The notes under the pieces are model-generated. The model made no database searches. It had not been told where the DNA came from and saw nothing but the letters and a program-made list of their open reading frames with translations. The translations under genes were made by a program, and so were the position numbers. From assembly GCA_021768085.1 (NCBI GenBank), contig JAETOJ010000016.1, forward strand, positions 1 through 59,240: a stretch of 59,240 nt of DNA, read 5' to 3'. Of this stretch, positions 2,190-59,240 are shown piece after piece (position 1 is the first letter of the stretch; each line of letters starts with the position of its first letter). Source of the stretch: Bacillota bacterium (GTDB taxonomy: Bacteria; Bacillota; Clostridia; Oscillospirales; Oscillospiraceae).

Positions 2190-4531
2190 CTTGCGTCCTC
2201 CCCAATCTCAATGGTAAAGCCGACATGCACATCCTCCGTCTGTTCTGTGTGGACGGTGAGGGCGGCGGTACCCGCCCGGCCCAGGGTGCGCACATAGGCG
2301 CCGCACATACCGCCCTCCGCCGTGGAGACAGCGGGGCCCACCAGCTCCAAGTCTCCCGCAAGGGTAAAGACCACCGGGAGCTGGACATAGGGGGCCGGAT
2401 TCCCGTTCTCGTCCAGCACCCGCACCCGAACGGCGGCCATATCATAGCTCACCGCTTCCCGCAGGGCAGTGCGGCTGGCCGTTACCTCCAGATGGAGCTT
2501 TGCCGAGGGGCAGCAGGTGACGCTGGCCACAACCTGTCCGTCCCTGAGCCCGTCAAAGCGCCATACGGTGGCCTCGCCACCCCAGTTGGCCACGTACTTG
2601 CCGTACAGATCCACGCCGTCCTGAAGCTTCAGACCGTACCGGGCCATGCACCACAGCAGTTTCGCCTTGGCGGAGGCGGACAACCCCGCCAGACCGCCGC
2701 AGTCCCGGGCGGCCAGCAGGCACTCCCGGATCACCTTGGCCTTGGCGGGCGGGAAGCCCTCCTGGCTCTCCAGCAGCTGGCCGATGGTGTCGTCCACCAC
2801 AAAGGGCGGGTGGGGCAGGGCGGCCCACCGGGAGCGGTGCAGCTTGGTGACAAACACGCCGTTTTTATACAGAGCCACCTCATCCGCGTTGGAAAACACA
2901 TACACCTGCCGGATCCGCCCGGCGGGATAATCCCCGATGTCCATGGACGAGCCCACTGCCAGCACCGGGGTCTCATCCCCCTGGCTGGCATAGGCCGCCG
3001 CCGCCAGTTTGGGGTTGCGGAAGGCGTCCAGCACCCCGTGGTAGCAGATCCGGTCGCCGGAGCCAAAGTCCTTGTGGGTGGGGTAGTCGAACATACACCA
3101 GCCGAAGCACCCCGCGTGCTCCTTCAGCGCCGCGTTCTGCACCCGGATGTGGCGCAGGGCATGCTCCTGCCGCCGGGCCCAGGTGTCCCAGGGCTTGGTG
3201 GGGAACATATGGCCGTTGCACTCGGAGATCAGCAGGGCCTTGCTCATGTCCGGAGTCACTGCTTTTTTGGGCTTGGCCCCGGGGGTGCGCCCGTTGTGGG
3301 AAAAGTCGTTATAGGCGTACACGTCCTCTAAAAGATGGCTCTGCTCCAGGTAGCGCACGCCGGAGGTCTGGCGGCTGGGATCCAATTCATGGGCGGCGGC
3401 GTTGGTGCGGGCGTACAGCCCGTCGTCGTCCAGGCTCTCGTTGATCCGCACCCCCCACAGCACCACGGAGGGGTGGTTCCGGTATTGCAGCACCATCTCC
3501 CGGACGTTTTCCACCGCCTGCTCCTTCCAGGCCGCGTCCCCGATGTGCTGCCAGCCGGGGAGCTCGGTGAATACCAGCAGGCCCAGCCGGTCGCACTCGT
3601 CCAGGAAATACTGGCTCTGGGGGTAGTGGCTGGTGCGCACGGCGTTGCAGCCCAGCTCCTCCTTCAAAATGCGGGCGTCCTCCCGCTGGAGGTGCTCCGG
3701 GGCGGCATAGCCTACGTAAGGAAAGCTCTGGTGGCGATTCAGCCCCCGCAGGAAGGCCTTTTTGCCGTTCAAATAGAAGCCGTCCGCCGCAAACCGCGCG
3801 GTGCGGAAGCCGAACGCCGCCTCCTGCCGATCCAGCTCCGCCCCGTCCGGGGCCAGCAGCCGGACGGCACAGCGGTACAGGACGGGGTGCTCCGTGTCCC
3901 AGGGCTTGGCGGAGGGGACACCGGCCAGCCCCGGCGCGCCCGTCCACACCGTCTCCCCGTCTCCGTCCAGGATGGCCGCCTCCAGTCTGGAGCCCTCCGG
4001 CGCGCCGTCAGTGGAAACCTTGACGTCCGCCGTAGTCAGGGACGGCGTGGTGACGTAGATGTCGGTGATGTATCCGCTCTCCCGCACGTCCAGCCACGCC
4101 TCCCGGTACAGTCCGCCGTAGGTAAGGTAGTCCACCACGAAGCCAAAAGGCGGGATGGCCGGATTCTCGCTGGTGTCCAGCTCCACCGCCAGCAGGTTCT
4201 GCCCCGGCTGCACCAGCCCGGTCAGCTCCACCCGAAAGGCGGTGTAGCCGCAGCGGTGGACGGAGGCCTCCACGCCGTTGACATAGACCGTAGCGATGTG
4301 GGCCGCGCCATCCAGCTGGAGGAACAGCCGCTTCCCCTCCAGCTCCGGCGACACCTCCAGCCGCCGCCGGTAGCCGCACACCATCTGGTAATCCGCCGGG
4401 TCGATGCAGTGCAGGGGCAGCTCCCGGTTGGTGTGGGGCAGGCGGACGGGCTGGGCCGTCCCCTCCTCCGCCGCAAATTCCCTGCTCCATCGGGGGGTGA
4501 ACTCCCAGCCGTCACATAAACTATACCTCAT
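2180..4531 (-). CDS. GH2-family beta-glycosidase
   Basis: A 783-residue glycoside hydrolase family 2 protein without a signal peptide, so cytoplasmic. The order is an N-terminal sugar-binding jelly roll (about 1-170), an Ig-like middle, a TIM barrel (about 260-510), and C-terminal beta domains. Catalytic signatures are NAVRTSHYPQ at the barrel start, the acid/base Glu in GVRINES (about residue 365), and the nucleophile Glu in LLISECNGH (about residue 437). The segment DFGSGDRICYHGV is seen in galactosidase-like GH2 members. I do not see the NxK motif that marks beta-glucuronidases, so a beta-galactosidase or related activity is more likely, although the TetR-GH2-GPH order resembles uidRAB. 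Its start overlaps the end of tetR. Confidence 0.88.
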   Translation of the reverse strand: MRYSLCDGWEFTPRWSREFAAEEGTAQPVRLPHTNRELPLHCIDPADYQMVCGYRRRLEVSPELEGKRLFLQLDGAAHIATVYVNGVEASVHRCGYTAFRVELTGLVQPGQNLLAVELDTSENPAIPPFGFVVDYLTYGGLYREAWLDVRESGYITDIYVTTPSLTTADVKVSTDGAPEGSRLEAAILDGDGETVWTGAPGLAGVPSAKPWDTEHPVLYRCAVRLLAPDGAELDRQEAAFGFRTARFAADGFYLNGKKAFLRGLNRHQSFPYVGYAAPEHLQREDARILKEELGCNAVRTSHYPQSQYFLDECDRLGLLVFTELPGWQHIGDAAWKEQAVENVREMVLQYRNHPSVVLWGVRINESLDDDGLYARTNAAAHELDPSRQTSGVRYLEQSHLLEDVYAYNDFSHNGRTPGAKPKKAVTPDMSKALLISECNGHMFPTKPWDTWARRQEHALRHIRVQNAALKEHAGCFGWCMFDYPTHKDFGSGDRICYHGVLDAFRNPKLAAAAYASQGDETPVLAVGSSMDIGDYPAGRIRQVYVFSNADEVALYKNGVFVTKLHRSRWAALPHPPFVVDDTIGQLLESQEGFPPAKAKVIRECLLAARDCGGLAGLSASAKAKLLWCMARYGLKLQDGVDLYGKYVANWGGEATVWRFDGLRDGQVVASVTCCPSAKLHLEVTASRTALREAVSYDMAAVRVRVLDENGNPAPYVQLPVVFTLAGDLELVGPAVSTAEGGMCGAYVRTLGRAGTAALTVHTEQTEDVHVGFTIEIGEDARWN

Positions 4532-5081
4532 TGTCCCGCCTCCTAATTCCGTTCATAATGATGTCGATCATGGCCGCCAGGGTATCCGCATAGCTGGTTC
4601 CATCGTCGCCCCTGGTGAGGAAGCATTCGATGGAAGCGGTAATCATCTGCCGCAGTACCGGGATTGACACCGGGCGGATGCGCCCTGCCGCCATCCCCTC
4701 TTCCAGGAGCGTGATGGTGGGTTCCCAGTTGCTCTCCAAGTGCTCCCGCACCCGGTGGGCTGCGGCAGGGTATTTTTCGTCCAGCGTGTCAAGCAATCGG
4801 AAATCCAGCGCCCGGTACTGTTCGGGCAGAGCCACAATGACGGCGCGTATGCGCTCCTCAATAGGGATGGACGCGGCCCTCAGCTCTCCCTTCACCCGAT
4901 GAATGTCGGCGAACAGGGCGTCCACCATGTCCACCAGCAGCGCCTCCTTGGAGGGGTAAACGGTGTAGATGGTCTTCTTGCTGATGTGCAGGGCGTCGGC
5001 TACCTTCTGCATGGTGAATTGCAAGCCTTCCACCTGAAACAGTGTGGTGGCCGCGTCGAGCATGCGCTGGCGCAGATCCAT
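4521..5081 (-). CDS. TetR-family transcriptional regulator
   Basis: A 186-residue protein. Its N-terminal helix-turn-helix (about residues 5-55) reads RQRMLDAATTLFQVEG then KVADALHISKKTIYTVYPSK, typical of TetR. The C-terminal ligand domain is all-helical. The frame is open further upstream, but the ATG at 5081 is chosen because GGAGGGGG lies just before it. It is the first gene of an overlapping three-gene operon with the GH2 enzyme and GPH symporter, so it probably represses the operon until a sugar ligand binds. An inverted repeat at 5102-5129 beside the promoter is a plausible operator. Confidence 0.9.
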   Translation of the reverse strand: MDLRQRMLDAATTLFQVEGLQFTMQKVADALHISKKTIYTVYPSKEALLVDMVDALFADIHRVKGELRAASIPIEERIRAVIVALPEQYRALDFRLLDTLDEKYPAAAHRVREHLESNWEPTITLLEEGMAAGRIRPVSIPVLRQMITASIECFLTRGDDGTSYADTLAAMIDIIMNGIRRRDNEV

Positions 5082-5101
5082 CGGCGATCCCCCTCCTTCA
5101 C

Positions 5102-5159
5102 GGAAACCAAGTTCCTCTATATAGTTTCCATGATAGCATAGGAAATCACATTGTTTCAA
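5102..5159 (-). promoter_or_regulatory. Promoter and putative TetR operator
   Basis: Read on the minus strand: -35 TTGAAA (5154-5159), an 18-base spacer and -10 TATCAT (5130-5135). Just downstream is an inverted repeat, GGAAAC at 5124-5129 and GTTTCC at 5102-5107. This places a candidate operator across the transcription start of tetR-GH2-GPH. Autoregulation is inferred. Confidence 0.45.
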
Positions 5160-5300
5160 GCGGTTCCCAGAAGTTCTATTATCCCAACAATTAGGGACTT
5201 GCTTTTTTGTATATTTTGCCGGTTTAATAGCGGGGTGTTTTAGAAATCTCCCATATTGTGGGCCGAAAAAGGTTTGGCGGTGACCTATGACAAACAGAGT

Positions 5301-5338
5301 AAAAAAATCCTGCAGCCCTGGAAGCATAGGGCTGCAGG
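5301..5338 (-). terminator. Intrinsic terminator
   Basis: On the minus strand, an 11-bp stem CCTGCAGCCCT / AGGGCTGCAGG (5309-5338) is followed by ATTTTTTT. It ends transcription of the small 5873-5407 gene pair and insulates the tetR promoter. Confidence 0.75.
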
Positions 5339-5406
5339 TTCGCTGATCATGTCAGCAAGGGAATAGACCTGTACTCTACTCGCGGCATTTGCATAAAAGT
5401 ACAGCA

Positions 5407-5640
5407 TCATGCAGAGTGTTCAACTGTTTCATCTGCGGTCAGATAGGCCCGGAGCAGATCTTCCAGCAGATCGTATCGGTCAACCCCTGCCACCAGCTGC
5501 CTTGCACCGCTATGATTGGTGATGTACGTGGGGTCACCCGTCAGGATATAGCCGGTAATCTGATCCATGGGCCGATATCCCCGCTCCGTTAAGGAGGCGT
5601 ATACACGCTCCATTACCGCTCTGCGTTCCGCTTGGTTCAT
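5407..5640 (-). CDS. IreB-like (DUF965) small protein
   Basis: A 77-residue protein with the IreB/UPF0297 core LTERGYRPMDQITGYILTGD followed by PTYITNHSGARQLV and a helical LLEDLLRAYL tail. IreB in enterococci is a phosphoprotein target of the Ser/Thr kinase IreK. Housekeeping copies normally sit next to ruvX and an UPF0473 gene. This copy instead lies 3' of a deleted polymerase/YolD fusion and overlaps it by 4 bases, as in mobile-element cassettes carrying short IreB-like proteins. Its role here is unknown. The first residues differ from housekeeping IreB. Confidence 0.7.
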   Translation of the reverse strand: MNQAERRAVMERVYASLTERGYRPMDQITGYILTGDPTYITNHSGARQLVAGVDRYDLLEDLLRAYLTADETVEHSA

Positions 5641-5873
5641 GATAGTTCCTCCTCGAAGGGAAGCTCCGCGAACAGTTCGCCCTCCACTTCCAGAATGCCC
5701 TCAATCGGGATAGTGGTTCCATCGGCGAGGGTCAATCGACCTTCCAATGGCTCCAGTTTTTTCCGTGCCCACGGCAGTGACTTGGTGGTCAAGGGCTCCA
5801 GGCCGCGCTCAATGCATTCCACCGAGGCGTAAAAGCTTTTGAGATCACGGGTGATGTAGACCCTGTCCGGCAT
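5637..5873 (-). pseudogene. Deletion fusion: Y-family polymerase N-terminus to YolD C-terminus
   Basis: The first ~27 residues after ATG 5873 read VYITRDLKSFYASVECIERG, the first motif of UmuC/DinB-type Y-family polymerases, including the catalytic Asp and the aromatic SFYASVE. The frame then changes character to EGRLTLADGTTIPIEGILEV and GELF, which matches the C-terminal part of YolD-like proteins. In intact elements the polymerase and YolD-like genes are separate neighbours, so a deletion has removed most of both while keeping the frame. The ATG at 5873 is preceded by GGAGAGG; a TTG upstream is less likely. The product cannot be a polymerase. Confidence 0.7.
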
Positions 5874-42440: not shown

Positions 42441-43451
42441 CTATTTCGCGATGTTCTTCTGGAAACGCATGAGGATAGCGGCCACCTGGGCCCGGATGGC
42501 GGAGCCCTGGGGCTGGAGGAAGGTTGTGCCGCCGTTGGCTACGCCGTTGATGAGCTTGGCCTGGTTGGCCCAGGCCAGGGCGTCGGCAGCGTACCCGCTG
42601 ACCCTGCCCGCGTCGGGGAACAGGGCGGACAGGTTGGCCCTGCCGCTCACGTCGTAGGCCTTGTACTTGGCGTAGTTGAACAGGATGGTGGCAAGCTGCT
42701 CCCGGGTGATGGCGGCCTCGGGCCGGAACGTCCCGTCGGTGTAGCCGTTGACAATGCACTCCGACGAGGCCCAGCGGACGGCCTCGGTGTACCAGCTGGC
42801 GGGCACGTCGGTGAAGGGCATCAGGTAGTTCACCACCGGCTCCCCCTCCAGCCGCCAGAGGATGGTGACGATCATGGCCCGGGTGGTGGTTTTGTTGGGC
42901 TCGAACAGGGTGCCGCCGGTGCCATTCATCAGCTGGGCGGCGTAGACGTAGGCCACCGCGTCGTGATACCACTGGCCCTCGGGCACGTCGGTGAAGGGCA
43001 GGGCCACGGTGGGAGAGCCCACGCCCACCGTGGTGTAGGACAGCTCCCGGCCGCCCCCTGCCTCCAGATCCAGCAGCTTCACGCCGGTGGCGGCGGTGAT
43101 CCGGAAGGCGCTGTCCGCGGTGAGCACGCCCAGCAGAATGGCGTCCCCCTGGTTGATCTGGTTGCGGGAGGTGACATAGAGGGTGACGCTGTTTCCGCTG
43201 ACGGTGAGGGCAGTGTGGGTCTCGCCACCGGACAGGGCGGGGGCAAACTGAAAACCGACGGGGGCTCTGTCCAGGGTTAGGGTGATCTGCACAGAGTCGA
43301 AGCTGCCGGACAGCCCTCGGAGGGTGACGGTCTGGCCGGCGGTGCCCTGGCCGTCCACCTGTACCCAGAGGGGGGAGGCGGCGGAGGCCGGGCCGATGAG
43401 CAGGGCGGCAGCCAGCGCCGCGGCCAGCAGCAGGGAAAGAATGCGTTTCAT
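42441..43451 (-). CDS. SLH-anchored surface protein with cohesin-like N-terminal domain
   Basis: A 336-residue exported protein. Signal peptide MKRILSLLLAAALAAALLIG ends PASAA. Residues ~26-145 form an all-beta domain (GTAGQTVTLRGLSGSFDSVQ ... DAILLGVLTADSAFRITAAT), whose pattern resembles a divergent cohesin. Three S-layer homology modules follow: LPFTDVPEGQWYHDAVAYVY, MPFTDVPASWYTEAVRWASS and ALFPDAGRVSGYAADALAWA. SLH modules bind pyruvylated cell-wall polymer. The gene starts 13 bases after the dockerin-bearing M60 peptidase, so it may anchor that enzyme. The SLH call is firm; the cohesin reading is my inference. Confidence 0.85.
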   Translation of the reverse strand: MKRILSLLLAAALAAALLIGPASAASPLWVQVDGQGTAGQTVTLRGLSGSFDSVQITLTLDRAPVGFQFAPALSGGETHTALTVSGNSVTLYVTSRNQINQGDAILLGVLTADSAFRITAATGVKLLDLEAGGGRELSYTTVGVGSPTVALPFTDVPEGQWYHDAVAYVYAAQLMNGTGGTLFEPNKTTTRAMIVTILWRLEGEPVVNYLMPFTDVPASWYTEAVRWASSECIVNGYTDGTFRPEAAITREQLATILFNYAKYKAYDVSGRANLSALFPDAGRVSGYAADALAWANQAKLINGVANGGTTFLQPQGSAIRAQVAAILMRFQKNIAK

Positions 43452-43464
43452 GGTTGGCCCTCCT

Positions 43465-46400
43465 TTATTGGACGCCCTCGCCCGTCAGGACGAGCTGGGG
43501 CAGGGTGTGGGTCTGGGGGAAGCTGATCCACAGCGTCTCGCTGGTCACCCGGCGGCTGGCGCTGGAGTAGGGATCGTCGGTGCGGTAGAGCACCGCCCGG
43601 AACTCGGTGGGATCGTCGGCGGTGACGCCGGTCTGGGCATTGAGGGCCTCCTCCGCCTTCCAGTCGGGGACAAACACCCAGAAGCCGTCGCTGGTGTCGC
43701 TCACCTGGCCGTCCGCCGGGATCTCGGCGAAGAACAGGGCAAAGCCGTTCAGGGCGCGCTCCACGCTGGTGACGCCGTTCTCTTCCTGGGCCTCGGGGGT
43801 GGTGTTGTAGCGGGCCTGGATCTCCAGAGTATTGTAGACGGGGTCGCCCCGGTAGGTGCCCACCACAACCACTGTGCCCGCGGGCACCACGCCGCCGTCA
43901 TAGGCCAGAGGCTGGGCCAGCTTGCCCACCGACGCCCCCGGGTAGAAGTCCACCCGGTCGCCGGGGTAGTCCAGCAGCTCCACCTGCGCCCCGGCGGACA
44001 GGCCGGAAATCCGCAGGGCAGACACATCGTACGTCCAGATGCGGCTGTCGCCGGGGGCGCCGGGCTTGGCGAAGTAGACCACGCCGCCGTTGTCCGGGCC
44101 CAGGGCCACTGGGCTCCAGCTGCCGCCCAGTAGGGCGCTGACGGTACAGCCTGCCAGACTGCCGCCGCTGACCTTCAGCCCGGTGACGGAAACGGCCCCG
44201 GTCCGCATGGTGATCTCCACGTCCGCCCCATTGCGGGTCAGGGTGTAGAGGCTGGGGGAGACGGTCTTGTCATAGGCCACCCGCACCTGTCCGGCGGACA
44301 CGGCGTCCCCCCGGTTGCCCAGCCTGTCCACCGGGATGACGGAGTAGGAATAGGTCAGGTTGTTGGCCGCGCCCAGATCGTCCACATAGGCGCTGCCGGT
44401 GGTGAAGCCGATGGGGTTGCCGTTACGCAGGATCTCATAGCCCAGCACCGTGCTGTCCCCGCCGGAAATGGACACCGTGGCGTGGTTCTGGCTGACGGAG
44501 GCGGAGGCGGACACCCTGCCGCGGAAGGCGCTGCCGTTTTGCAGGCGGTAGGCATAGGAGTCGTCGTTCAGATACCAGATGGCCCGGGTTTCGGTGGGCA
44601 GCCTGGACAGGGTGGCCTTGGCCTCCTCCCCCAGGATCAGGCCCCAGCGGGTGAAGAACTCGGTGAGGTTCCGGCCCGCGGTCTGGGAGGCGATGAGGGC
44701 CACCCGCTCGTCGTAGGAATACCCGCTGTAGCTGCCCGACTTCCAGGCGGTGAAGAAGCGGTTATAGAAGTCCAGCGGCTTGGCGGCGCCGTCATAGGCC
44801 AGGTGGAGCTGCCAGTACATACCCAGCTGGACGAACACATTTCCGGCGGAGCCGGGACGGCCCTGGGCGGTCTTGTCATAGACGGCGGGCCAGATATTGC
44901 TGAGGGTGAGCCGGGTAGGCCGGGCCATGGAGCCGCCGTCCCAGGCCTGGACGGCCAGAGCGTAGATGTTATTGGTGATCTCGGCCCGGCCCAGCTTGTC
45001 CATGTTGTGGCCGATCTCGTGGGCGATGCCCCAGCCGAACAGGCCGTTGGCATTGCCCGCACTGGTCTGGGACACGGGCCGCCCGCACACCATGCCCTGG
45101 GCGGAGCCGTAGCCGATGCCGATATGGTTCCCGGCGGCGTACATGAAGGCCCCGGCGAACATTCTCATGTAGCGGATATTCTGACGGGTGCTCATGGGAT
45201 AGCAGTAGGAATCCGTCCGGGCCCCGCCGGCGGGCACGATGCCCTGCACCTGATTGGCCACGTACAGCACATCCTCCCAGGCCAGCACGTTCTGGTACAT
45301 GGCCTGCGTCATCTCATCCACCGACGCGCCGATGCCGGACAGGCCGGCCAGCGCCCGGTCGGCGGGGATGGACAGCAGTACGCTGGGAGTGGAGATCTCG
45401 GTGGCGTTGCGGATATCGGTGCCCGGCATGGAGAGCTTGAGGGCGGCCACATAGGTCTGAAGCTCGGCGACATAGGCGCGGATGGTATCCCGGCGGACGG
45501 CCTCGCCCATGTTATACCAGCCGGACAGCTCCAGCACGGGCATGGCAAAGCTGTTCTGATCCAGCCGCACCTGGAGCTTGATGGCCCCGGGGCTGCCCCC
45601 GGCGTAGGACAGGTACAGCGGGCCGCCCCGCTCGTCGGTGAGGGAGCCGATCTTGGGCACATAGATGTAGTTGCGGCCGTTCTCCAGTTTGACGGCAGTG
45701 CCCCGCCAGATGCCGGACTCGCCGTAGAACTGGGTGGGGGTGACATATACCGGCGCGTCCCCGGGCAGGGAGGCGTACACCGCCACCACCGAGCCCGCCC
45801 GGGCGGTGACGCCCAGGGGCTGGAGATCGCTGGCGCTCTGGCCGTAGGCGGCGTCCTTGGCGGAGCCCCGGCTCTGGAAATCGCCCTTGATCAGGCCCAG
45901 GGCGGAGGTGTTGCCGGCCAGCAGGGCGGAGGCCAGATCCAACTCGTCCCGCAGGCGGGCCGGATCCAGGTAGAAGTCCGCCTTGGCGTCCAGCCGGGCG
46001 GAGAGGGCGGCGATGGCCCCGGCGGTGGCCCCCGGCCGCAGAGAGGTGAAGCTGCCGTCGGCAAAGAGGGAGGCGATCTCGTCGGGCAGGGTGTCGCTCT
46101 TGTAGAAGGCCATGTCCGAGATGCTCACCCGGCAGCCGTTGCCCTCCCGCTCGTTGAGGGTGAAGGAGAGCTTGGTCACGTCCTCCAGCAGGGGGAAGGT
46201 CAGCACCAGGTAGTTCTTGCTGGGATCCATGGAGCGGGCGGTGTACTGTGTCTCCTCCAGTACCTGTTCCCCATTGCTGTTCCAGGCGGTGACGGTGTAG
46301 GTTCTGAGGGCGTACTTGTGGTTGCCACCCAGGTAGGGCACCAGGATGGCGTAGTTCATGTCCTGGGGCTCCCGGAAGGTGTAGGTGAAGCGGCTGCTCA

Positions 46401-48237
46401 CCCACCACTGATTGGCCACCCAATAAGTGGCCGCGTCGTTGTCAATGACGTGCTCGGTCTTGAAATTGGGGCACAGGGAGCGGTTCACATTGTTGGGGTT
46501 CTCCATCACCACGGAGGTCACCATGCTGTTGTCGATCCGGCCCTCCCGGGGCAGGTCGGGCATGACCAGTGCCTCCTGCTTGGGGGTGCCCAGGGCGGTG
46601 GCGGAGTAGGGGCCGGTGCCCCGGGCGTTGCCTGCCTTCACCGCCACCTCATAGGCGGTGCCGTTCACCAGCCCGGTGATGGTGGCGGAGGTGGCGGTGA
46701 TATCGCCGCCGAACTGTTGGAAGGCGCTCTGTCCCGCGGGGCGGTAGAACACCTGATAGTAGGCCGCGTCCTTGGTTTTGCCCCAGGTGAGCCGCAGGGA
46801 CTGATCCGCCTCGGTCAAGCCGAGGTTGGAGGGGGCCCCGGGCACCCCGGCGGGCTGGGGCATGGCGGACACCGTCCGGGAGGGGGCGCCCCGCCAGTCC
46901 CCGTTGACGGCGGTGACCTGGAAGTAATAGGTTTTCAGATTGTCCAGCCCGGTGATCACCGCCCGGTTGGTGTTGACCGGGAGAGTCTGGGTGAGGGCGG
47001 AGGCGCTGAGGCCGTAGGCCACGGTGTAGCCGGTGACGTTGCGCACCGCGCTCCAGTCCAGGGTGACGCTGCCGTCGCCGGGGGTGGCGGCGAGGCCCTT
47101 CACCCGGTCGGCGTCGTTGATCGGGTTGTCGGGCACGATGTCCTTGAGGAACTCGATCTTGGTGACGGTGGCGAAGCCGCTCCCGCTGCTGGCGGCGGTC
47201 ACCTGGATGGTGACCTTTTTCACCGCCACCTTGCGGCCCAGGTCGATGGTGACCACCCGCTGGCCCTCCTGCTCCCCGATGGCGTACACGTCTGCCGGGG
47301 CGGCGGCGTCAAAGGGGACGGTGAGGGTGGAGCCGTCGGCCAGCTCGGCCAGCACCGTGCCGGCCTCCACGCCGCCCTGGCCCACCCCGTCGGGGCAGGT
47401 GATCCGGATCTGGCTCATCTCCACGCCGCGGCTGTCGTCCAGGGTGATGGGGAGCTCCACCGACCCGTTGGAGGGAAAGACGGTAACAGAGCCCTCGTCC
47501 CGAAACAGATCGTCCGCGTTTCCTTGCAACAGGCCGGCGGGCACATCCACCCGGGGGGCGACGATGGCGGCGGCGTCCAGCACCTGGGCCTGGCCGGCGG
47601 CGTTCCGGGCGTGGTTGACGTAGGCCAGATCGGTCACGTCCACCTTGCCATCGCCGTTGAGGTCGTAAGGGCCAACCTGGGCGGTCTTGCCCAGGCGGAC
47701 GTCCAGGGCGGTGAGATCGGCGCCATCCACCGCGCCGTCCCCGTTCACATCTCCCAGGGAGAAGGTGGCGTCGCCGGTGCCCACGATGATGTGCTGGCTG
47801 TAGCCGTCCAGGGTGACGGTCTGGCGGAAGGGTTTGTACCCCACGCCGGTGAGGGTCAGCTCATACCGGCTCCCGCCGGCGGGCAGGCCGGACAGCTGGG
47901 CCTCGTAATAGCCCACCTGGGTCTCGTGGGTGAGCTCCACGCCGTCGGTGTTCTTCACCGAGACGGAGGGACCGGCGCCCAAGCTGTTCTCCAGGGGAGT
48001 CCCCTCGGGCAGGGAGATCCGGGCGGTTCCGCCGCTCCCCCGCACCTCCAGCCGAATGTCCCGTCCCGCGGCGGAGGCGGCGGTCTGGGGCAGATCGAAC
48101 CGGAGGGTGAGGCCGATGGAGCCGGTGAGCGGTTCCGCGCCCGGCGCGGCATAGGCGGCGGGCAGCCCCCCGGCCAGCAGGGAGAGGGCCAGGAGCAGGC
48201 CCAGCGCCCGGTCGATCAATCGCTTCGCAGGTTTCAT
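43465..48237 (-). CDS. Secreted multidomain M60-like peptidase with dockerin and Fn3 domains
   Basis: A 1590-residue exported protein. Signal peptide from MKPAKRLIDRALGLLLALSL to AAYAA. Then a beta domain (about 40-150); a type I dockerin (about 157-215) with paired Ca loops LGDVNGDGAVDGADL and YDLNGDGKVDVTDLAYVNHA; a carbohydrate- or ligand-binding region; two Fn3 domains (about 375-560); an F5/8 C-like domain (about 585-740); and the M60-like zincin with H1073/E1074/H1077 in GIAHEIGHNMDKLG. Further beta domains and a C-terminal tail follow. M60 peptidases cut O-glycosylated proteins such as mucin. Start at 48237 is chosen for the signal peptide and AGGATG-type site. Confidence 0.9.
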   Translation of the reverse strand: MKPAKRLIDRALGLLLALSLLAGGLPAAYAAPGAEPLTGSIGLTLRFDLPQTAASAAGRDIRLEVRGSGGTARISLPEGTPLENSLGAGPSVSVKNTDGVELTHETQVGYYEAQLSGLPAGGSRYELTLTGVGYKPFRQTVTLDGYSQHIIVGTGDATFSLGDVNGDGAVDGADLTALDVRLGKTAQVGPYDLNGDGKVDVTDLAYVNHARNAAGQAQVLDAAAIVAPRVDVPAGLLQGNADDLFRDEGSVTVFPSNGSVELPITLDDSRGVEMSQIRITCPDGVGQGGVEAGTVLAELADGSTLTVPFDAAAPADVYAIGEQEGQRVVTIDLGRKVAVKKVTIQVTAASSGSGFATVTKIEFLKDIVPDNPINDADRVKGLAATPGDGSVTLDWSAVRNVTGYTVAYGLSASALTQTLPVNTNRAVITGLDNLKTYYFQVTAVNGDWRGAPSRTVSAMPQPAGVPGAPSNLGLTEADQSLRLTWGKTKDAAYYQVFYRPAGQSAFQQFGGDITATSATITGLVNGTAYEVAVKAGNARGTGPYSATALGTPKQEALVMPDLPREGRIDNSMVTSVVMENPNNVNRSLCPNFKTEHVIDNDAATYWVANQWWVSSRFTYTFREPQDMNYAILVPYLGGNHKYALRTYTVTAWNSNGEQVLEETQYTARSMDPSKNYLVLTFPLLEDVTKLSFTLNEREGNGCRVSISDMAFYKSDTLPDEIASLFADGSFTSLRPGATAGAIAALSARLDAKADFYLDPARLRDELDLASALLAGNTSALGLIKGDFQSRGSAKDAAYGQSASDLQPLGVTARAGSVVAVYASLPGDAPVYVTPTQFYGESGIWRGTAVKLENGRNYIYVPKIGSLTDERGGPLYLSYAGGSPGAIKLQVRLDQNSFAMPVLELSGWYNMGEAVRRDTIRAYVAELQTYVAALKLSMPGTDIRNATEISTPSVLLSIPADRALAGLSGIGASVDEMTQAMYQNVLAWEDVLYVANQVQGIVPAGGARTDSYCYPMSTRQNIRYMRMFAGAFMYAAGNHIGIGYGSAQGMVCGRPVSQTSAGNANGLFGWGIAHEIGHNMDKLGRAEITNNIYALAVQAWDGGSMARPTRLTLSNIWPAVYDKTAQGRPGSAGNVFVQLGMYWQLHLAYDGAAKPLDFYNRFFTAWKSGSYSGYSYDERVALIASQTAGRNLTEFFTRWGLILGEEAKATLSRLPTETRAIWYLNDDSYAYRLQNGSAFRGRVSASASVSQNHATVSISGGDSTVLGYEILRNGNPIGFTTGSAYVDDLGAANNLTYSYSVIPVDRLGNRGDAVSAGQVRVAYDKTVSPSLYTLTRNGADVEITMRTGAVSVTGLKVSGGSLAGCTVSALLGGSWSPVALGPDNGGVVYFAKPGAPGDSRIWTYDVSALRISGLSAGAQVELLDYPGDRVDFYPGASVGKLAQPLAYDGGVVPAGTVVVVGTYRGDPVYNTLEIQARYNTTPEAQEENGVTSVERALNGFALFFAEIPADGQVSDTSDGFWVFVPDWKAEEALNAQTGVTADDPTEFRAVLYRTDDPYSSASRRVTSETLWISFPQTHTLPQLVLTGEGVQ

Positions 48238-48377
48238 TAGGTGACATCCTTTCTGTTCTGTCAGAGTGGTTCCTGTTGTTATGTCAAACAAAACAGTTAT
48301 GCGGAAATTTATTGTAATCTCCCCAGGAAGTTCTGTCAACCATAATTCCGGATTCTTTCCAAAAGGACAGCGAAAAA

Positions 48378-51244: not shown

Positions 51245-52291
51245 TCAGGCCGCCACGGTCATGTATTCGTCATAGAGCATTTGCGGCGTTTTCCACTCCA
51301 GGATCCGGCGCGGATAGTTGGCCAGCCACTCCTCCACCTCCGCCACCTCCGCCGCGCTCACATTGTCAAAGTTGGTCCCCTTTGGAAAAAACCGCCTTAT
51401 GATCCGGTTCATGTTCTCATTGGATCCCCGCTCATAGGCAGAATATGGGTGACAATAAAAAATCTTTGTGCGCGGTTTCCTGGCCCGCTTTGATCTCTCC
51501 ATCCCCTCGCAGTCCTGGAACTCACACCCATTATCTACTGTGATAGACCGGAAAACCTCCCGGAACTTTGCGCCCATGCGCCGCTCCATGCGGTCCAGCG
51601 CCCGGACCACGCTTTCCATGGTGTGATCTGGCACCCGTACAATGACGGGGTAACGGGTCAGCCGCTCGGTCAGGACCACCAGGGCCGCCTTGCTGCCTTT
51701 GCACCCCATAACGCTGTCCATTTCCCAGTTCCCAAACGTGTCCCGGCTGTTGATCTCCTCCGGGCGCTGTTCGATGGTGTCCCCCTTTGCCGGTCTGGCC
51801 CTTTTCTGGCGGTCCCGGTCCTCCGGTTTCCGGTGGTCGCCTTTATATAGCAGGTCCTCCTCTGTCACGTTCAGGAAAATGTCCCCCCGATAAATCCAGT
51901 TGTAAAGAGTAGTTTCACAAATTTCTGTATCAAACTTTTTCCCGTCAATCTTGATTTGTGCCAGGGCAGCGCCGGGGGACCGCTTTTTATTTATGATCTG
52001 GTCCTCTATGTACTCCACAAAAGCAAAGTCTTTGCCCAGCTTAATGTCCGGCCCCTTTGCCCTCAAATTCTCCTGGTATTTCCGCTCCGCCACGTCCGCG
52101 CAGTATCTTTCCACAAATTCGTATTCACTGGTTTGCTGTACGCACATTCCCCGCTTGATCTCATTGTATATAGTTTTCTTGCATACCCCTATTTCCTGTG
52201 CGATTGCCTCCGGTTTCGCCCCTGTCCGCAGGGCACCCTCTATTTTCAGGCGTTGCTCCCACTGGATATGATGATAGCCCTTGTAATTCAT
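51245..52291 (-). mobile_element. IS30-family transposase
   Basis: A 348-residue DDE transposase. The N-terminal helix-turn-helix reads HIQWEQRLKIEGALRTGAKP then IAQEIGVCKKTIYNEIKRG. The catalytic triad is D192 in GNWEMDSVMG, D253 in ITVDNGCEF and E292 in GSNENMNRIIRRFFPKG, with normal spacing; it is intact and full length. ATG 52291 has GGAGGC upstream. I find no terminal inverted repeats immediately flanking it, so it may be a domesticated or prophage-linked IS30-type gene rather than a complete insertion sequence. Confidence 0.88.
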
Positions 52292-52315
52292 AGCAGCCTC
52301 CTTTTGGCATGACAA

Positions 52316-52344
52316 AACCGGCGCGGTGCAATACCACGCCGGTT
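52316..52344 (-). terminator. Terminator of the XRE gene
   Basis: AACCGGCGCGGT pairs with ACCACGCCGGTT (one G-U) around GCAAT; on the minus strand it is followed by TTTTG. It abuts the stop at 52345. Confidence 0.75.
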
Positions 52345-52587
52345 TCACTCTCTCCCCAGCAGCCACAACACGGAAACGTCCAAAATATCCGCTATTGTGG
52401 TAACTTCATAATCTGCCACATACCTGCTGCCGCTCTCAATCCTGCTTATGCTGTCCCGCTCCATGGGGATCCCTGTTAGTTGTAACTGTCTGCATAGATC
52501 AGACTGTGAAAAGCGTTTCGCCAGGCGGGCCAGCCTTATGCGATCACCACAAATATTTCTTTTTCCGTGAAATGTGTATGCCCTCAT
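52345..52587 (-). CDS. XRE-family helix-turn-helix protein
   Basis: An 80-residue Cro/CI-like DNA-binding protein. The HTH covers about residues 15-72 with RIRLARLAKRFSQSDLCRQL, ISRIESGSRYVADYEVTTIA and DILDVSVLWLLG, the standard HTH_3 endings. GGAGG precedes the ATG. It is short, so a lone DNA-binding domain. It is transcribed toward the IS30-type gene and may be a prophage or element regulator. Confidence 0.85.
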   Translation of the reverse strand: MRAYTFHGKRNICGDRIRLARLAKRFSQSDLCRQLQLTGIPMERDSISRIESGSRYVADYEVTTIADILDVSVLWLLGRE

Positions 52588-54010: not shown

Positions 54011-55012
54011 TTATTTCACAGCCCCGCCCAGGGCGCACAGCAGCGCGTCCAGACTGGGGAATGTGTTATAGTTGGCCAGCCAATAGTCCGGCGTGTCGAT
54101 TACGCCAGCGGCCACCAGGGCACCCACGGCGTTGGCCACGGTGCTGGAGCGCAGCCCGGCCTTGGTGATTTTCGCCGCCGCTTTGATCAGCAGGCGGTCC
54201 AAATATTTGACCTTGCCGGACGCGGCGGCCCGCTGCCAGTAGTCCGGGGAATTGATCACGCCCAGCTTGGCCAGCTTGGCCACAGCTGCCGCCGCCTCGG
54301 TCAAATAGATCACCTGGCCCACCCGGATCAGGTTCTTGTTTCGGATCCCGTTGATGGCCGCCAGGGCGTCCACGGTGGTGCCGTAGCGGGCCGCGATCTT
54401 GCCCAGGGTATCACCCGCCGCAACGGTGTGGGCGGTGCCCTGGACCGCGCTGGAGGCCCCCGTGGCTGGCGTCGTGGTGCTGGTGGTGGTCCCGCCCATC
54501 TTTTTGGCAATCGCCGCAAAGTCCGGGCAGATAAACCCGCGTATGTACCGGCCATTTATGGCCATGGTCCGGGTGCCCACCTTGCCGCCGCTCATGTTGC
54601 CCTCTGTCACCACAAAGGACCCGGCGGAAACCTTGGTCACGATCCCGATGTGGTCCCCGGCTCCGGTGCAATCGCCCTTGCCGTTGTCCTGCCAGTCATA
54701 CACGCAGGCGTCCCCGATCTTGGGCGTGTGGGCGTCGTTCTCCACCCATATTCCCTTGGCTTTTGCCACCAGCGTGTATTTTTCCACGCCGCACTCTGTC
54801 CCGGTGTACTCCGCGATCCCGGCCCGGATATAGGCCGCGCTCACCGTGGTGGCACAATAGGCGTCTTTCACCTGGACTTTGTACCCCCGCGCCAGGGGGC
54901 GGTAATTGTTGTAAACCTCCAGAATGTCCAGGTGTTTGGCGCTGCCCTTGGTGGCCCCCACCCATGCGTTGATGGTGTCCGCCACTTTCTGGCGCAGTTG
55001 GTTCTCTGTCAT
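54011..55012 (-). CDS. Phage endolysin with cysteine peptidase/amidase and LysM domains
   Basis: A 333-residue lysin. The N-terminal domain has a Cys in DAYCATTVSAAYIRAG (about residue 53) and a His in GAGDHIGIVTKVSAGSFVV, the CHAP/NlpC-like dyad. A Thr-rich linker leads to a LysM (about 195-240: HTVAAGDTLGKIAARYGTTV, then INGIRNK). Two C-terminal repeats share the pattern GVI[ND][ST]PDYW: GVINSPDYWQRAAA and GVIDTPDYWLANYN. There is no signal peptide, so a holin is needed. GGAGG precedes the ATG. It would degrade the host peptidoglycan at lysis. Confidence 0.88.
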   Translation of the reverse strand: MTENQLRQKVADTINAWVGATKGSAKHLDILEVYNNYRPLARGYKVQVKDAYCATTVSAAYIRAGIAEYTGTECGVEKYTLVAKAKGIWVENDAHTPKIGDACVYDWQDNGKGDCTGAGDHIGIVTKVSAGSFVVTEGNMSGGKVGTRTMAINGRYIRGFICPDFAAIAKKMGGTTTSTTTPATGASSAVQGTAHTVAAGDTLGKIAARYGTTVDALAAINGIRNKNLIRVGQVIYLTEAAAAVAKLAKLGVINSPDYWQRAAASGKVKYLDRLLIKAAAKITKAGLRSSTVANAVGALVAAGVIDTPDYWLANYNTFPSLDALLCALGGAVK

Positions 55013-56382: not shown

Positions 56383-57003
56383 TTACTCCTCCGCCGCCTC
56401 GGTCCAGCCGTACACGCCCGGCTCCCACACGTTGCCGTCCAGGTCGCTGGTCCAGTGTTTCCCGTTCCGGCTCACCTTTGCGCCCTTGGCATAAGCGTCC
56501 TGCGCTCCCACCGGCTGGGACCACTCCGGCCATTCCTCCGCCGGGTCCGCCACCCGTTTCCACAGGCTGGGGGAGGCGTCCGGGGTCCAATCCTCTTGTG
56601 AAGTGTGGTCCTGCAGGCATTGGTAAAGCTGGCCGTCCGTGTACCGGCGGATCTGCCCGGCTTTGTAGTTCACAGGCACGGCCCAGGTGGCGAACAGGTC
56701 CGCGTGTTCCGCCGCCGTGGTGACGTCAATGCTCCCGGCCTCCGCCAGCGTTACAAACATGATCCCGCCGGTTTCCGCCGCCCTGGTGATCTCTCCGCCG
56801 GCGTCGGTTTCCTCCAGCATGACGGTGGCCGCCGCGCCCTCCATGTCCGGGCGGCCCAGCAGGTGGAAAACCTGGCCGCCGTGTGCGATCCCCTCCGCCT
56901 CCGCCTCCCGGCACAGGGTAAAGCACCCGTTTTCAGCCCTACGGACATAGTTGGGGGCCTCGGTCATGGCCACGGTTTCCCCGTCCCTGGTGATCTTATA
57001 CAT
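56383..57003 (-). CDS. Phage tail-associated protein with chitinase-type carbohydrate-binding modules
   Basis: A 206-residue protein. The N-terminal half (MYKITRDGETVAMTEAPNYV...) is a small beta domain. The C-terminal half holds two CBM5/12-like modules: YKAGQIRRYTDGQLYQCLQD with TSQEDWTPDASPSLWKRV, and YAKGAKVSRNGKHWTSDLDG with WEPGVYGWTE. These modules bind polysaccharide surfaces and are common on phage tail tips. GGAGG precedes ATG 57003, which overlaps the reverse-transcriptase remnant by 8 bases. It may help bind the host cell wall. Confidence 0.8.
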   Translation of the reverse strand: MYKITRDGETVAMTEAPNYVRRAENGCFTLCREAEAEGIAHGGQVFHLLGRPDMEGAAATVMLEETDAGGEITRAAETGGIMFVTLAEAGSIDVTTAAEHADLFATWAVPVNYKAGQIRRYTDGQLYQCLQDHTSQEDWTPDASPSLWKRVADPAEEWPEWSQPVGAQDAYAKGAKVSRNGKHWTSDLDGNVWEPGVYGWTEAAEE

Positions 57004-57427
57004 TGCTTTTTCCTCCCTTGTAAATCGCATAGAATAGACGGCGCAGGCGCAAAACACGCCCGTGGTCATTGAATTTTTCAAAATAGGCAATTTGCCCCTG
57101 CAGCCATTCCTCCACCTGATTGACGGTCATTTCCCCGGCGTCCACTTTCCCCTTGAATTTTTTCAGTTTTCGCCTGGCGCGTTTCATGCTGTCCCTGCAC
57201 CCATGCGTGATCACCCGCCCGGTTTCGGTCAGCTGGAATTTTACTTTGCAAAACCGGAACGGTTTGGCAATGCTCACCACTTTGGACTTTTTGCGGTTTA
57301 CTTCTATTCCCATGCGTTCCGCCCGCTCGGTCACGTCCTCCATGGTCTGCCGCGCCTCCTCCATGGTTGGCAGCTTTATACGGACCGCGAAAAGCACCAG
57401 ACCGCCGGTAGAGCGGCACCAACACAA
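56996..57427 (-). pseudogene. C-terminal remnant of a DGR-type reverse transcriptase, catalytic motif lost
   Basis: After about 12 leading residues the frame reads WCRSTGGLVLFAVR, aligning with the RT catalytic box R-Y-A-D-D-L-V-L-F-A but with STGG in place of YADD. Then VTERAERMGIEVNRKKSKVV and FRFCKVKFQLTETGRVITHG and SMKRARRKLKKFKGK match the thumb of DGR reverse transcriptases (NxKKS, F..CK..ltetG). About 200 N-terminal residues, including the fingers and palm, are absent; the frame opens only at the stop of the avd gene. It cannot synthesise DNA. ATG 57427 is only the first available start. Confidence 0.7.
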
Positions 57428-57460
57428 CGGGACATTTTCAAAGACACACCCAAAAAATAT

Positions 57461-57919
57461 TTATTTTCGCTTTCTGTCGCTCTCCATGACCTCCCGGATC
57501 TTTCCGTCCAGCTTGTCGATCTTCTCCCCCAGGCTTTGGGCCATATTATCCAATTTCTTTTTGGCCTCCTCCGCCTTTAGGACCCGCCCGCTGGCCGTGG
57601 TAAAGCACCCCTCCGGGTTTTGCCACATGATGATGTAACAATGGGTCAGGCGCACGTCCAGGGCCGAAAGGCTGGCCTGCGCCTCCAGCAGATGGCCTTT
57701 CCGCAGGCTTTTCCGCTGTTCGTCGGATGGAAAAATTTTGTTTGCCTCCTCGCAGTTGTCCATAACCTCGCCGGCCAGTTTCGCCACCGGCTCCGCCAGC
57801 AGGCGGGCGTACCGGCTGGACAATCGCGTTAAAAACGCGATTGTTTCCATATAAATCTGGTTGGCGGTGTTCACATACTCCGCTTTGCTGTCGGTCCGCT
57901 TGTATTTCAAAACAGACAA
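57461..57919 (-). CDS. avd: Avd-like accessory variability determinant of a diversity-generating retroelement
   Basis: A 152-residue all-helical protein. It begins LSVLKYKRTDSKAEYVNTAN then IYMETIAFLTRLSSRYARLL, with later SLSALDVRLTHCYIIMWQNP and KKLDNMAQSLGEKIDKLDGK. Four long helices and the N-terminal KxKRTxSKxEF-type start match the Firmicutes DGR Avd family. Avd forms a pentameric barrel that binds the DGR reverse transcriptase and RNA. The TTG at 57919 is chosen because GAGGAGGG precedes it; an ATG 13 codons upstream has no site. It lies between the variable gene and the RT remnant, the usual order. Confidence 0.8.
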   Translation of the reverse strand: MSVLKYKRTDSKAEYVNTANQIYMETIAFLTRLSSRYARLLAEPVAKLAGEVMDNCEEANKIFPSDEQRKSLRKGHLLEAQASLSALDVRLTHCYIIMWQNPEGCFTTASGRVLKAEEAKKKLDNMAQSLGEKIDKLDGKIREVMESDRKRK

Positions 57920-57956
57920 GTTTTTCCCTCCTCTTTCGGCTTTGTGCGGCCCTTTC

Positions 57957-57984
57957 ATCCCACCCCATTTTCATGGGGTGGGAT
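57957..57984 (-). other. DGR-type hairpin downstream of the variable region
   Basis: A perfect 12-bp stem (57957-57968 with 57973-57984). On the sense (minus) strand the arms are CCCACCCCAT / ATGGGGTGGG around the tetraloop GAAA. BPP-1 and other DGRs need a hairpin/cruciform with a GRNA tetraloop just 3' of the variable repeat for homing. This one lies 23 bases after the stop codon. A terminator is less likely because no T-run follows. Confidence 0.7.
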
Positions 57985-58007
57985 TAGGCCGGATACGCTG
58001 CGGCGGA

Positions 58008-59240
58008 TTAGACGGTAAAGCCGGGCGCCTCACCCCAGGAAAGGCTCGCGCCGCTGTAGGTGGCGGTGCCGTTGGTGCTGACAAGGCAGAAAATGTGGCT
58101 GTACCCGATGTAGACGGAACGGCACCAGTGATTGGCAGCGGTCCCGGTTTCCCCGTGCTTATACTTCACCTTGCTATTGCCTGCCTTGTAGTAGGCATAT
58201 TGCAGCTGGTAATTTTTCTCCGCGCTGTTGGCGTAGGTCCTGGCCCCGTGGTATTCAAACTCCGCCAGGTTGAAAAGATAGTCCGTGGTGCTGGTGACAT
58301 AGCTGGCATTATCGGACCCGCCGCCGGTGTTGTCGCTGTACTTGGTAACTGGTTTCATAACGGCCCGCAGGTCAGACGGCAGGGCGGCCAGCAGGGAGTT
58401 GGCCGGGGGGCTGGAGGGGGTCCCGCTGTTGCCCAGCAGGGTCTTTCTCATATAGCTGTTGCTCCACCCGCCGCTGTTGGTGTTGCTGGTGTTCATTTGG
58501 AAACGCCCGGACGATGTGGAGGAACTGCCATAATTGCTGTCACACAGGCAAACGTCTTTCCCGCCGATCTTGCCGATCTGGAAGTGGATCCGGTTGGTGC
58601 CCTCCCGGCTGCTGTTGTGGTTAAAGCCGATAATAAAGGCGTCAATGGCCAGGCTGGAAAAAGTGAAATTCCCCACGGTTCCGTTGATGGTGATCCGCTT
58701 GGTGTCGCCCACGCTCCAGTAATTTTCACCCTGGCCCGCGTCGGAAACTTCCTTGATGGTGGCCCATGTATTATCATTCAGGGAGGTGGTGGGCAGGGTC
58801 ACGGACACGCTGCAGGTCTTATCCGTGGGCGCGGTGTGGTTGGTTCCTGCTGCCACCTTGACGGTAATGGTGGCGGTTCCCTTTGCCTTTGCGGTCACGG
58901 TCACGGTGGTGCCGGACACGCTCACCGTGGCCACGTTGGTGTTGCTGGAGGAGGCGGACACGGCCCCGTCCCCGGCCCGCGTCACGGAAATTGTGCCGGA
59001 CATGGTGCCCGTACTCAACGCCAGGCTGGACTTGTTCAGGCTGGAGGATCCCGCCGCCTTTCCGATGGACCAGGCCACCGTTTTGGCCGCCGTGGTGCCG
59101 TCACTCCACTGGTAATTGGAAACCGGGGTAAAGGTGGCGTTATAGCTGCCCGCGTTGGTGCCGCTTGTGGTGCCGCCCAGGGTCAGCTTGGCGGCGTCGT
59201 ACCCGCTCCAGACGGGGGACTGTGCCGATCCGGTATAGGT
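58008..59240 (-). CDS. Phage tail/receptor-binding protein with C-terminal variable (DGR target) domain, partial
   Basis: At least 410 residues; the 5' end is off the window, and the frame is open to 59240. Repeated beta domains come first (SGYDAAKLTLGGTTSGTNAG), then a Big-type Ig domain (ALSTGTMSGTISVTRAGDGA ... KAKGTATITVKVAAG) and a C-terminal domain that resembles DUF6273/C-type lectin-fold DGR targets (TTDYLFNLAEFEYHGARTY, then WCRSVYIGYSHIFCLVSTNG). The last residues are WGEAPGFTV, the usual end of variable proteins. An apparent GTG start at 59078 is internal. It probably displays a diversified ligand-binding face on the tail. Confidence 0.8.
   Translation of the reverse strand, partial: TYTGSAQSPVWSGYDAAKLTLGGTTSGTNAGSYNATFTPVSNYQWSDGTTAAKTVAWSIGKAAGSSSLNKSSLALSTGTMSGTISVTRAGDGAVSASSSNTNVATVSVSGTTVTVTAKAKGTATITVKVAAGTNHTAPTDKTCSVSVTLPTTSLNDNTWATIKEVSDAGQGENYWSVGDTKRITINGTVGNFTFSSLAIDAFIIGFNHNSSREGTNRIHFQIGKIGGKDVCLCDSNYGSSSTSSGRFQMNTSNTNSGGWSNSYMRKTLLGNSGTPSSPPANSLLAALPSDLRAVMKPVTKYSDNTGGGSDNASYVTSTTDYLFNLAEFEYHGARTYANSAEKNYQLQYAYYKAGNSKVKYKHGETGTAANHWCRSVYIGYSHIFCLVSTNGTATYSGASLSWGEAPGFTV
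58020..58127 (-). repeat. Variable region (VR) of the diversity-generating retroelement
   Basis: From the Trp codon at 58127 to the conserved APGF end, most codons have the form NNC: for example TGC, TCC, GTC, TAC, ATC, AGC, CAC, ACC, AAC, GGC. This is what results when AAC codons of a template repeat are rewritten at the two adenines. The invariant anchors (Trp, Phe-Cys, Gly, APGF) occur at the spacing of known DGR VRs. No matching template repeat was found in the window. Confidence 0.7.

What the first reader, a model, noticed from the sequence alone, without database searches (positions are those of the whole stretch)
56996..59240. Diversity-generating retroelement on a prophage tail protein, apparently stripped of template and polymerase
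Four DGR parts occur in the canonical Firmicutes order: a variable C-terminal domain (58020-58127), a GAAA-loop hairpin (57957-57984), an Avd-like helical protein (57919-57461), and the C-terminal part of a reverse transcriptase (57427-56996). Avd's stop and the RT fragment are only ~35 bases apart, where an intact element should hold the template repeat and about 200 RT residues. A deletion therefore seems to have frozen the tail protein in its last diversified state while leaving avd intact. Established: DGR architecture and roles. Inference: timing and cause of the loss.
Basis: partly seen in the sequence, partly recalled or inferred. Interest (0 to 1): 0.85.

Follow-up and report, generated by a model that had tools for sequence, protein, structure and literature searches.

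The report
Broken, mismatched phage tail diversifier
A prophage carries a broken copy of the machinery that is thought to rewrite the tip of a tail protein in its relatives: compared with an intact relative, most of the template and the catalytic part of the copying enzyme are missing, so the tip is predicted to be fixed, and its variable stretch matches the template of a different relative, likely because recombination between phages separated the two.

Summary
At 56996-59240 lies a diversity-generating retroelement (DGR) with target gene, variable repeat (VR), GAAA-loop hairpin and an Avd-type gene, but only a 28-nt stub of the template repeat (TR) and the last 126 residues of the reverse transcriptase (RT). 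A relative with a 98%-identical Avd (L005) is intact and maps the loss: about 1,081 nt, from inside the TR to just past the RT's YMDD. Of 97 related loci with enough sequence, 96 have an uninterrupted RT and one a frameshift; the junction turned up in no other sequence searched. 'Frozen in its last diversified state' needs correcting: the VR does not fit the TR whose stub remains. Of 92 family TRs it fits L045 and L163 best (9 of 98 and 10 of 95 non-A mismatches) and L005 poorly (41 of 101). The locus is a mosaic: L045-like up to 12 nt past the target's stop codon, L005-like through hairpin, avd, stub and RT remnant. Related phages carry different avd-TR-RT blocks beside near-identical flanks, with VR and TR matching wherever testable; here the crossover fell inside the block. 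Three other DGRs in the genome have TRs that do not match this VR. Inactivated DGRs and orphan VRs are known; this is a mispaired, deleted variant.

The parts
58008..59240 (-). DGR target gene: C-terminal 410 codons of an Ig-repeat tail protein with DUF6273 domain; 5' end lies beyond the contig end
   Evidence: DUF6273 E=2.3e-5, Big_2 E=1.3e-4 just under its cut-off; PHROG 37900 E=3e-194; continuation on contig C102 inferred from 111-nt overlap
58017..58145 (-). Variable repeat; backbone of L045/L163 type
   Evidence: against L045 TR: 13 of 31 A positions changed, 9 of 98 non-A positions changed, Fisher p=1e-4; best two of 92 family TRs are L045 and L163
57995..57996 (.). Inferred crossover point: L045-like upstream in the gene, L005-like downstream
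   Evidence: 396 informative sites; upstream side 117 L045-like / 44 L005-like, downstream side 8 / 227; 0 of 2000 shuffles reach the fit
57957..57984 (-). Hairpin after VR: 12-bp stem, GAAA loop (L005 type, identical in L005)
   Evidence: fold -14.3 kcal/mol, z -5.6; alignment
57461..57919 (-). avd: accessory protein gene, 152 aa, TTG start, intact
   Evidence: 98% identical to L005 Avd; predicted fold aligns to BPP-1 Avd; same place between VR and TR in the relatives
57380..57456 (-). 77 nt identical to L005, ending in the TR stub
   Evidence: (100% over 77 nt)
57380..57407 (-). Template repeat stub: first 28 nt of the L005-type TR, no adenine in it
   Evidence: 100% match to L005 TR and to L005 VR
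57379..57380 (.). Deletion junction: about 1,081 nt of the L005 arrangement absent
   Evidence: junction oligomers absent from viral contigs and no other junction in 400 family genomes
56996..57378 (-). Reverse transcriptase remnant: last 126 residues plus stop, without the YMDD motif
   Evidence: PHROG 1423 E=2.4e-11
56383..57003 (-). Flank: next phage gene (CBM_5_12 domain), part of the backbone shared by L005 and L045
   Evidence: 91% to both L005 and L045

Best explanation
This is the remains of a prophage DGR in which, relative to the intact relative L005, about 1.08 kb from inside the template repeat to just past the reverse transcriptase's YMDD motif is absent, so the element is predicted to be unable to rewrite its own target, and its variable repeat fits the template of another cassette type (L045/L163) instead of the stub that remains, likely because an earlier or accompanying crossover 12 nt after the target's stop codon joined one phage's tail-tip gene to another phage's hairpin-avd-TR-RT block. 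Shown by sequence: the parts, the stub, the missing stretch relative to L005, the mosaic of similarity, the A-biased differences between the VR and the L045-type TR. Inferred: that a deletion (and not an insertion in L005) made the difference, which the otherwise complete RTs of 96 of 97 relatives make near certain; that the mosaic arose by homologous recombination; that the protein is now fixed; that a template of the L005 type could not have homed into this VR, by analogy with BPP-1. The order of crossover and deletion is not shown; I favour crossover first, because a non-cognate template would leave the RT without use.
For: Breakpoints against L005. YMDD 245-248 lost, remnant from 252. RT in relatives: 96 of 97 evaluable loci uninterrupted by my thresholds, 1 frameshifted. 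TR/VR cognate (at most 3 non-A mismatches) in 81 of 85 evaluable loci. Window VR: of 30 sites where L045 and L005 TRs differ and neither has A, 24 match L045, 2 match L005, 4 neither; rank of L005 TR among 92 is 57th. Stub against VR in register 15 of 28, longest exact run 7 nt, whereas L005's own VR matches the stub 28 of 28. Switch point. The L045-like stretch runs 500 nt upstream of the VR and 14 nt past the stop region, so it is not retrohoming alone (77 against 35 sites upstream, 2 against 0 between 58010 and 57996). No TR for this VR in the assembled genome. Neither the crossover nor the deletion junction lies in a shared stretch long enough to suggest k-mer mis-joining: longest exact string shared by L005 and L045 near the crossover 14 nt (in the hairpin, not at the switch), by the deletion flanks 6 nt. 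Remnant shows no relaxed selection: dN/dS 0.166 against L005; window branch 15 synonymous and 10 non-synonymous changes, L005 branch 9 and 8, 5 ambiguous, as expected if the loss is recent.
Against: One draft assembly; no reads were available, so neither junction is verified. The deleted part of the window's own TR cannot be seen; only its first 28 nt are known. 35 of 112 informative sites upstream of the VR and 9 of 47 in the VR go with L005, not L045, and against L163 the far upstream part (59240-58701) is more L005-like (59 against 21 sites), so the upstream part may itself be patchy or come from an unsampled relative. Synonymous divergence from L005 differs along the cassette (avd dS 0.14, RT remnant 0.43), which a single donor does not explain. 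L005 is a single metagenomic contig. Avd identity rests on a predicted fold and gene order; sequence profiles did not name it, Foldseek alone gave no match at E<=0.001, and two S23-type or hypothetical proteins score above Avd.
Confidence: 0.85

Rival explanations
1. Assembly artefact: a co-resident intact L005-like and an L045-like phage in the sample were mis-joined into one contig, creating both the mosaic and the deletion.
For: The genome is a 110-contig draft, 90.6% complete; DGR loci are variable and hard to assemble; the contig ends in repeats. One viral contig of the survey (L015) does join an avd to an unrelated gene.
Against: No shared stretch longer than 6 nt at the deletion flanks or 14 nt near the crossover in the two relatives, whereas short-read joins need longer overlaps (general knowledge). 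The genome holds no second avd and no other L005-type TR.
Confidence: 0.08
2. The DGR is not dead: RT and Avd of one of the three resident DGRs act in trans on this VR.
For: Three DGR loci with TR/VR pairs lie in the same genome (18, 14 and 15 A-mismatches, no other mismatch) with open RT frames; the hairpin is intact.
Against: A template matching the VR is also needed and none is found.
Confidence: 0.03
3. Deletion first: an L045-type target gene was recombined into a phage whose DGR was already dead, so the mismatch had no part in the loss.
For: Both events are consistent with the sequence; the remnant shows no decay, so the relative age of the two is not resolved. Recombination in target ORFs is reported as common (PMC3521204, passage).
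Against: None decisive; in the survey no other locus has the RT deletion without mispairing, but that is one case only.
Confidence: 0.35
4. The RT remnant or the retained Avd keeps a separate function, so this is a pared-down system and not a wreck.
For: Both frames are open and conserved (remnant dN/dS 0.166, avd 0.081).
Against: A recent loss gives the same values; the arrangement was seen in no other locus.
Confidence: 0.04

Closest known systems
L005 (IMG/VR 3300035325_000049), intact DGR of the same phage backbone
   Same: Avd 98% identical, identical hairpin and TR 5' end, same gene order and flanks
   Different: Has TR (125 nt, 14 A-mismatches and 1 other to its own VR), spacer and a 377-aa RT with YMDD; its VR matches its TR
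L045 (IMG/VR 3300006137_000051) and L163 (CATKXO010000012.1), DGRs of the same backbone with another cassette
   Same: Target C-terminal region and VR backbone; TR that fits the window VR best
   Different: Avd only 53% identical (L045), hairpin and RT of another type; complete
Faecalibacterium phage FP_Taranis DGR (MG711467; Cornuault et al. 2018, PMC5883640, passages seen)
   Same: Target, homologous small gene, RT in the same order
   Different: Complete; that paper detected Avd homologues only in Mushu and Lagaffe, so the small gene of Taranis was not named Avd there
Inactivated DGRs in the DiGReF survey (PMC3521204, passages seen)
   Same: RT broken, VR kept
   Different: There by nonsense, frameshift or insertion with matching TR/VR repeats; here TR and RT are lost together and VR and TR stub do not match
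Orphan VRs of Treponema denticola (PMC4891356, passages seen)
   Same: Target genes left after loss of TR and RT; strain SP32 keeps a remote VR of another TR type
   Different: There remote chromosomal targets; here one cis cassette split by a crossover between VR and hairpin

Membership tests
Functional DGR | RT with catalytic YxDD and SQ motif | tested here: not met
   YMDD 245-248 and GVEPSQ 214 of the L005 RT lie in the missing part; remnant starts at 251-252
Functional DGR | Template repeat homologous to the VR | tested here: not met
   only a 28-nt stub, 15 of 28 to the VR, longest exact run 7; no other TR in the assembled genome
DGR locus (active or not) | VR at the 3' end of a target gene, differing from a TR mainly at adenines | tested here: met
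   13 of 31 A against 9 of 98 non-A positions changed relative to L045 TR, p=1e-4; the 9 exceed the 0-3 usual for a cognate TR
DGR locus (active or not) | GC-rich hairpin with GRNA loop 4-34 bp after the VR | tested here: met
   GAAA loop, 32 nt after the VR; stem is 12 bp where Guo et al. list 7-10 (PMC3240598, passages)
Avd family | Avd helical-bundle fold | tested here: met
Avd family | Pentamer that binds RT and template RNA | not testable with these tools
   recalled property of BPP-1 Avd; no assay here
C-type-lectin DGR target | C-lectin fold around the VR | not tested
   only DUF6273 profile match; target not folded

The most novel reading that the evidence does not exclude
Mispairing came first: DGR cassettes of these phages can only be exchanged as one linked block (VR, hairpin, avd, TR, RT), and a crossover inside the block, between the VR and its hairpin, left a template that could no longer home, made the diversifier useless and led to its deletion, turning a tail tip that could change into a fixed one. 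The window would be a natural experiment showing that VR-TR matching keeps the block together.
Probability: 0.35. Interest if true: 0.6.

Novelty: new variant of a known kind. Interest (0 to 1): 0.42.

Why it matters
How phages gain and lose the ability to rewrite their receptor-binding tips is little documented. Here one locus, read against two close relatives, shows both breakpoints to the base: a cassette exchange that split the variable repeat from its template, and the removal of template and catalytic polymerase. It suggests that TR-VR matching constrains how DGR cassettes can recombine, which can be tested by counting crossovers inside and outside the block in larger sets. It also warns that a VR beside a DGR need not have been written by that DGR, and it gives a likely identity (Avd) to a phage protein family so far labelled unknown (PHROG 30516).

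Tried and rejected
Tried without result or rejected. Deletion junction as exact 34-mer and 21-mer in viral contigs: 0 matches each. The 281-nt junction region against 400 genomes of the family: besides the window, 6 genomes with weak partial matches of 26 to 105 nt, none across the junction. Avd by sequence profile: nothing above cut-off in Pfam and NCBIfam, no credible PDB relative by sequence (best E 0.19); Foldseek alone gave no match at E<=0.001 and no Avd in the 50 rows shown, so the Avd match comes from the second-look aligner only. First idea that the VR derives from the TR whose stub remains: rejected. Idea that the VR was written by retrohoming from a co-resident L045-type template: rejected as sole cause because the L045-like stretch extends about 500 nt upstream and past the stop codon. 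Idea of decay in the RT remnant: no sign. Group II intron origin of the RT fragment (NCBIfam group_II_RT_mat, 40.8 bits against a cut-off of 300): rejected because the L005 RT is next to a TR/VR pair. Exceptions in the survey that I looked at and did not drop: L193 RT frameshift; TR/VR not cognate in L015 (contig joins an unrelated gene upstream), L151 (VR masked as N), L156 (no pair found), L183 (8 A and 11 other mismatches). Survey loci are not independent: several contigs are near copies, and some contigs occur under more than one locus id.

Papers: only search listings and passages found by term were seen, no paper was read whole. In those searches I found no report of a DGR with VR and TR from two cassette types split by a crossover at the hairpin; the T. 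denticola SP32 case is the nearest.
Full report
What is there. The window is the whole of contig C93 of a draft genome of 2,937,561 bases in 110 contigs, 90.6% complete. Its last kilobases are one end of a prophage: endolysin at 54011-55012, CBM_5_12 protein at 56383-57003, then the locus in question. Read on the minus strand the order is target gene with VR, hairpin, avd, TR stub, RT remnant, CBM gene. The target gene runs off the contig end inside Ig-like repeats; the last 111 nt of contig C102 are identical to the end of C93, and C102 carries the upstream part of the target plus terminase, portal, head protease, tape measure, baseplate and tail genes (ten ORFs of C102 were scanned, not all). 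The join is inferred from the overlap and synteny with L005.

The missing piece. L005, a 7,035-bp viral contig whose Avd is 98% identical to the window's (97% by tblastn; 98% in the alignment), has the same arrangement complete: target 1304-3778, avd to 4325, TR from 4378, RT 4736-5869. Aligned to it, the window follows L005 to W57380, which lies 28 nt into the TR, and resumes at about W57378, one codon before the KLPT at residue 252 of the 377-residue RT. About 1,081 nt are absent: 97 of the 125 nt of TR, the spacer and RT residues 1-250 with YMDD 245-248. The remaining 28 nt of TR contain no adenine and are identical to both TR and VR of L005.

How unusual this is. I collected loci of the same avd family from viral contigs, one genome per species and annotated phages and scored them in one script. 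Of 97 loci other than the window with at least 2,300 nt after avd, 96 have an uninterrupted RT by my thresholds and one (L193) is frameshifted. Of 85 loci with enough sequence on both sides, 81 have a TR/VR pair with at most 3 non-A mismatches; the four exceptions are explained or listed under Tried and rejected. Loci are not independent. The window's junction was not found in viral contigs or in 399 other genomes of its family.

The VR is not the child of the stub. Against the L045 TR the window VR differs at 13 of 31 adenines and 9 of 98 other positions (Fisher p=1e-4), the mark of adenine mutagenesis from a template close to L045's; against the L005 TR it differs at 18 of 28 adenines and 41 of 101 other positions. 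Ranked over 92 family TRs, L045 and L163 are first and second and L005 57th. At 30 sites where the two TRs differ and neither has A, the VR matches L045 at 24, L005 at 2 and neither at 4. In the 28-nt stub the VR agrees at 15, with no exact run longer than 7 nt. In BPP-1, runs of 8 bp or more suffice for the upstream step of homing and 19 or more do better (PMC3240598, passage); by that analogy a TR with this 5' end would home poorly or not at all into this VR. That is an inference; the 3' part of the window's own TR is gone and cannot be compared.

A mosaic locus. L045 and L005 share the backbone on the downstream side (98% in the flank; W-L005 and W-L045 both mostly 48-59 of 60 in blocks from 57020 to 56060), but have different cassettes (Avd of L045 53% to the window's). 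Of 396 sites that separate them between 58700 and 57380, the window is L045-like at 117 and L005-like at 44 up to 57996, and 8 and 227 after it; 0 of 2000 shuffles fit a single switch as well (sites are treated as independent). By stretch: upstream of the VR 77 to 35, VR 38 to 9, 58010-57996 2 to 0, 57995-57920 0 to 31, avd 8 to 158, 57460-57380 0 to 29. The switch lies 12 nt after the stop codon and 11 nt before the hairpin. Because the L045-like part begins far upstream of the VR, homologous recombination is the likely cause. The upstream part is not purely L045-like, and with L163 in place of L045 the far upstream part is more L005-like (59 to 21 sites), so the donor is a relative of these and not one of them.

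Exchange of cassettes is common in this group. In one search, with 99 loci that have a downstream flank, 23 locus pairs have flanks at least 88% identical but avd under 80%; three of these pairs involve the window. Of the 12 other loci in these pairs, 9 have enough sequence to test TR/VR and all 9 are cognate (at most 3 non-A mismatches), 3 (L012, L017, L211) are cut off before the VR. So blocks are exchanged with VR and TR still matching; the window is the only mispaired case with a broken RT among those examined. L183 is a further locus with poor matching but complete RT.

Trans-activity. Four RT genes lie elsewhere in the genome: one is of group II intron type (C22; by its GTPQGG motif, recalled), and three (C88, C33, C75) have TR/VR pairs with 18, 14 and 15 A-mismatches and no other. 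Their TRs do not fit the window's VR (48 of 93, 59 of 95, 53 of 96 non-A mismatches). Searches of the assembled genome with the VR, with the L005 TR region and with Avd return only the window's own copies.

Age. The remnant has dN/dS 0.166 to L005, polarised changes are 15 synonymous and 10 non-synonymous on the window branch, 9 and 8 on the L005 branch, 5 ambiguous, and no stop. So the loss is recent relative to the split from L005. avd shows dN/dS 0.081. dS differs between avd (0.14) and remnant (0.43), which I cannot explain with a single donor.

Verdict. The better account is a mispaired and deleted DGR: a recombinant whose VR belongs to one cassette type and whose avd, template stub and polymerase remnant belong to another. 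RT inactivation and recombination in target ORFs are reported (PMC3521204, passages), orphan VRs too (PMC4891356, passages). The combination, with both breakpoints placed, is a new variant of a known kind and of moderate interest.

Noticed in passing
own genome G000: C88:14729-15325, C33:127308-127946, C75:49416-49952 (L036-L038): Three further DGRs with TR/VR pairs that differ only at adenines (18, 14, 15 positions), so this genome holds four DGR loci, one of them broken.
   Followed up: partly
L183 4609 and 5503: Related DGR with open RT (384 codons) whose VR and TR differ at 8 A and 11 other positions; may be another decoupled pair.
   Followed up: partly
L193 5844-6943: Related DGR with RT split by a frameshift but TR/VR still cognate (16 A, 0 other).
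   Followed up: partly
L015 1-997: Viral contig in which the avd-TR-RT block follows what reads like a glycogen-synthesis gene fragment (name recalled, not searched); probably a mis-joined contig.
   Followed up: no
57461-57919: PHROG 30516, labelled unknown function, is likely an Avd family.
   Followed up: partly
43465-48339 and 42441-43451: 1,624-aa protein with Peptidase_M60, fn3 and dockerin domains beside an SLH-domain protein, both chromosomal.
   Followed up: no
51245-52366: Transposase-like gene (rve, HTH_38) next to the prophage end, beside small HTH gene 52345-52587.
   Followed up: no
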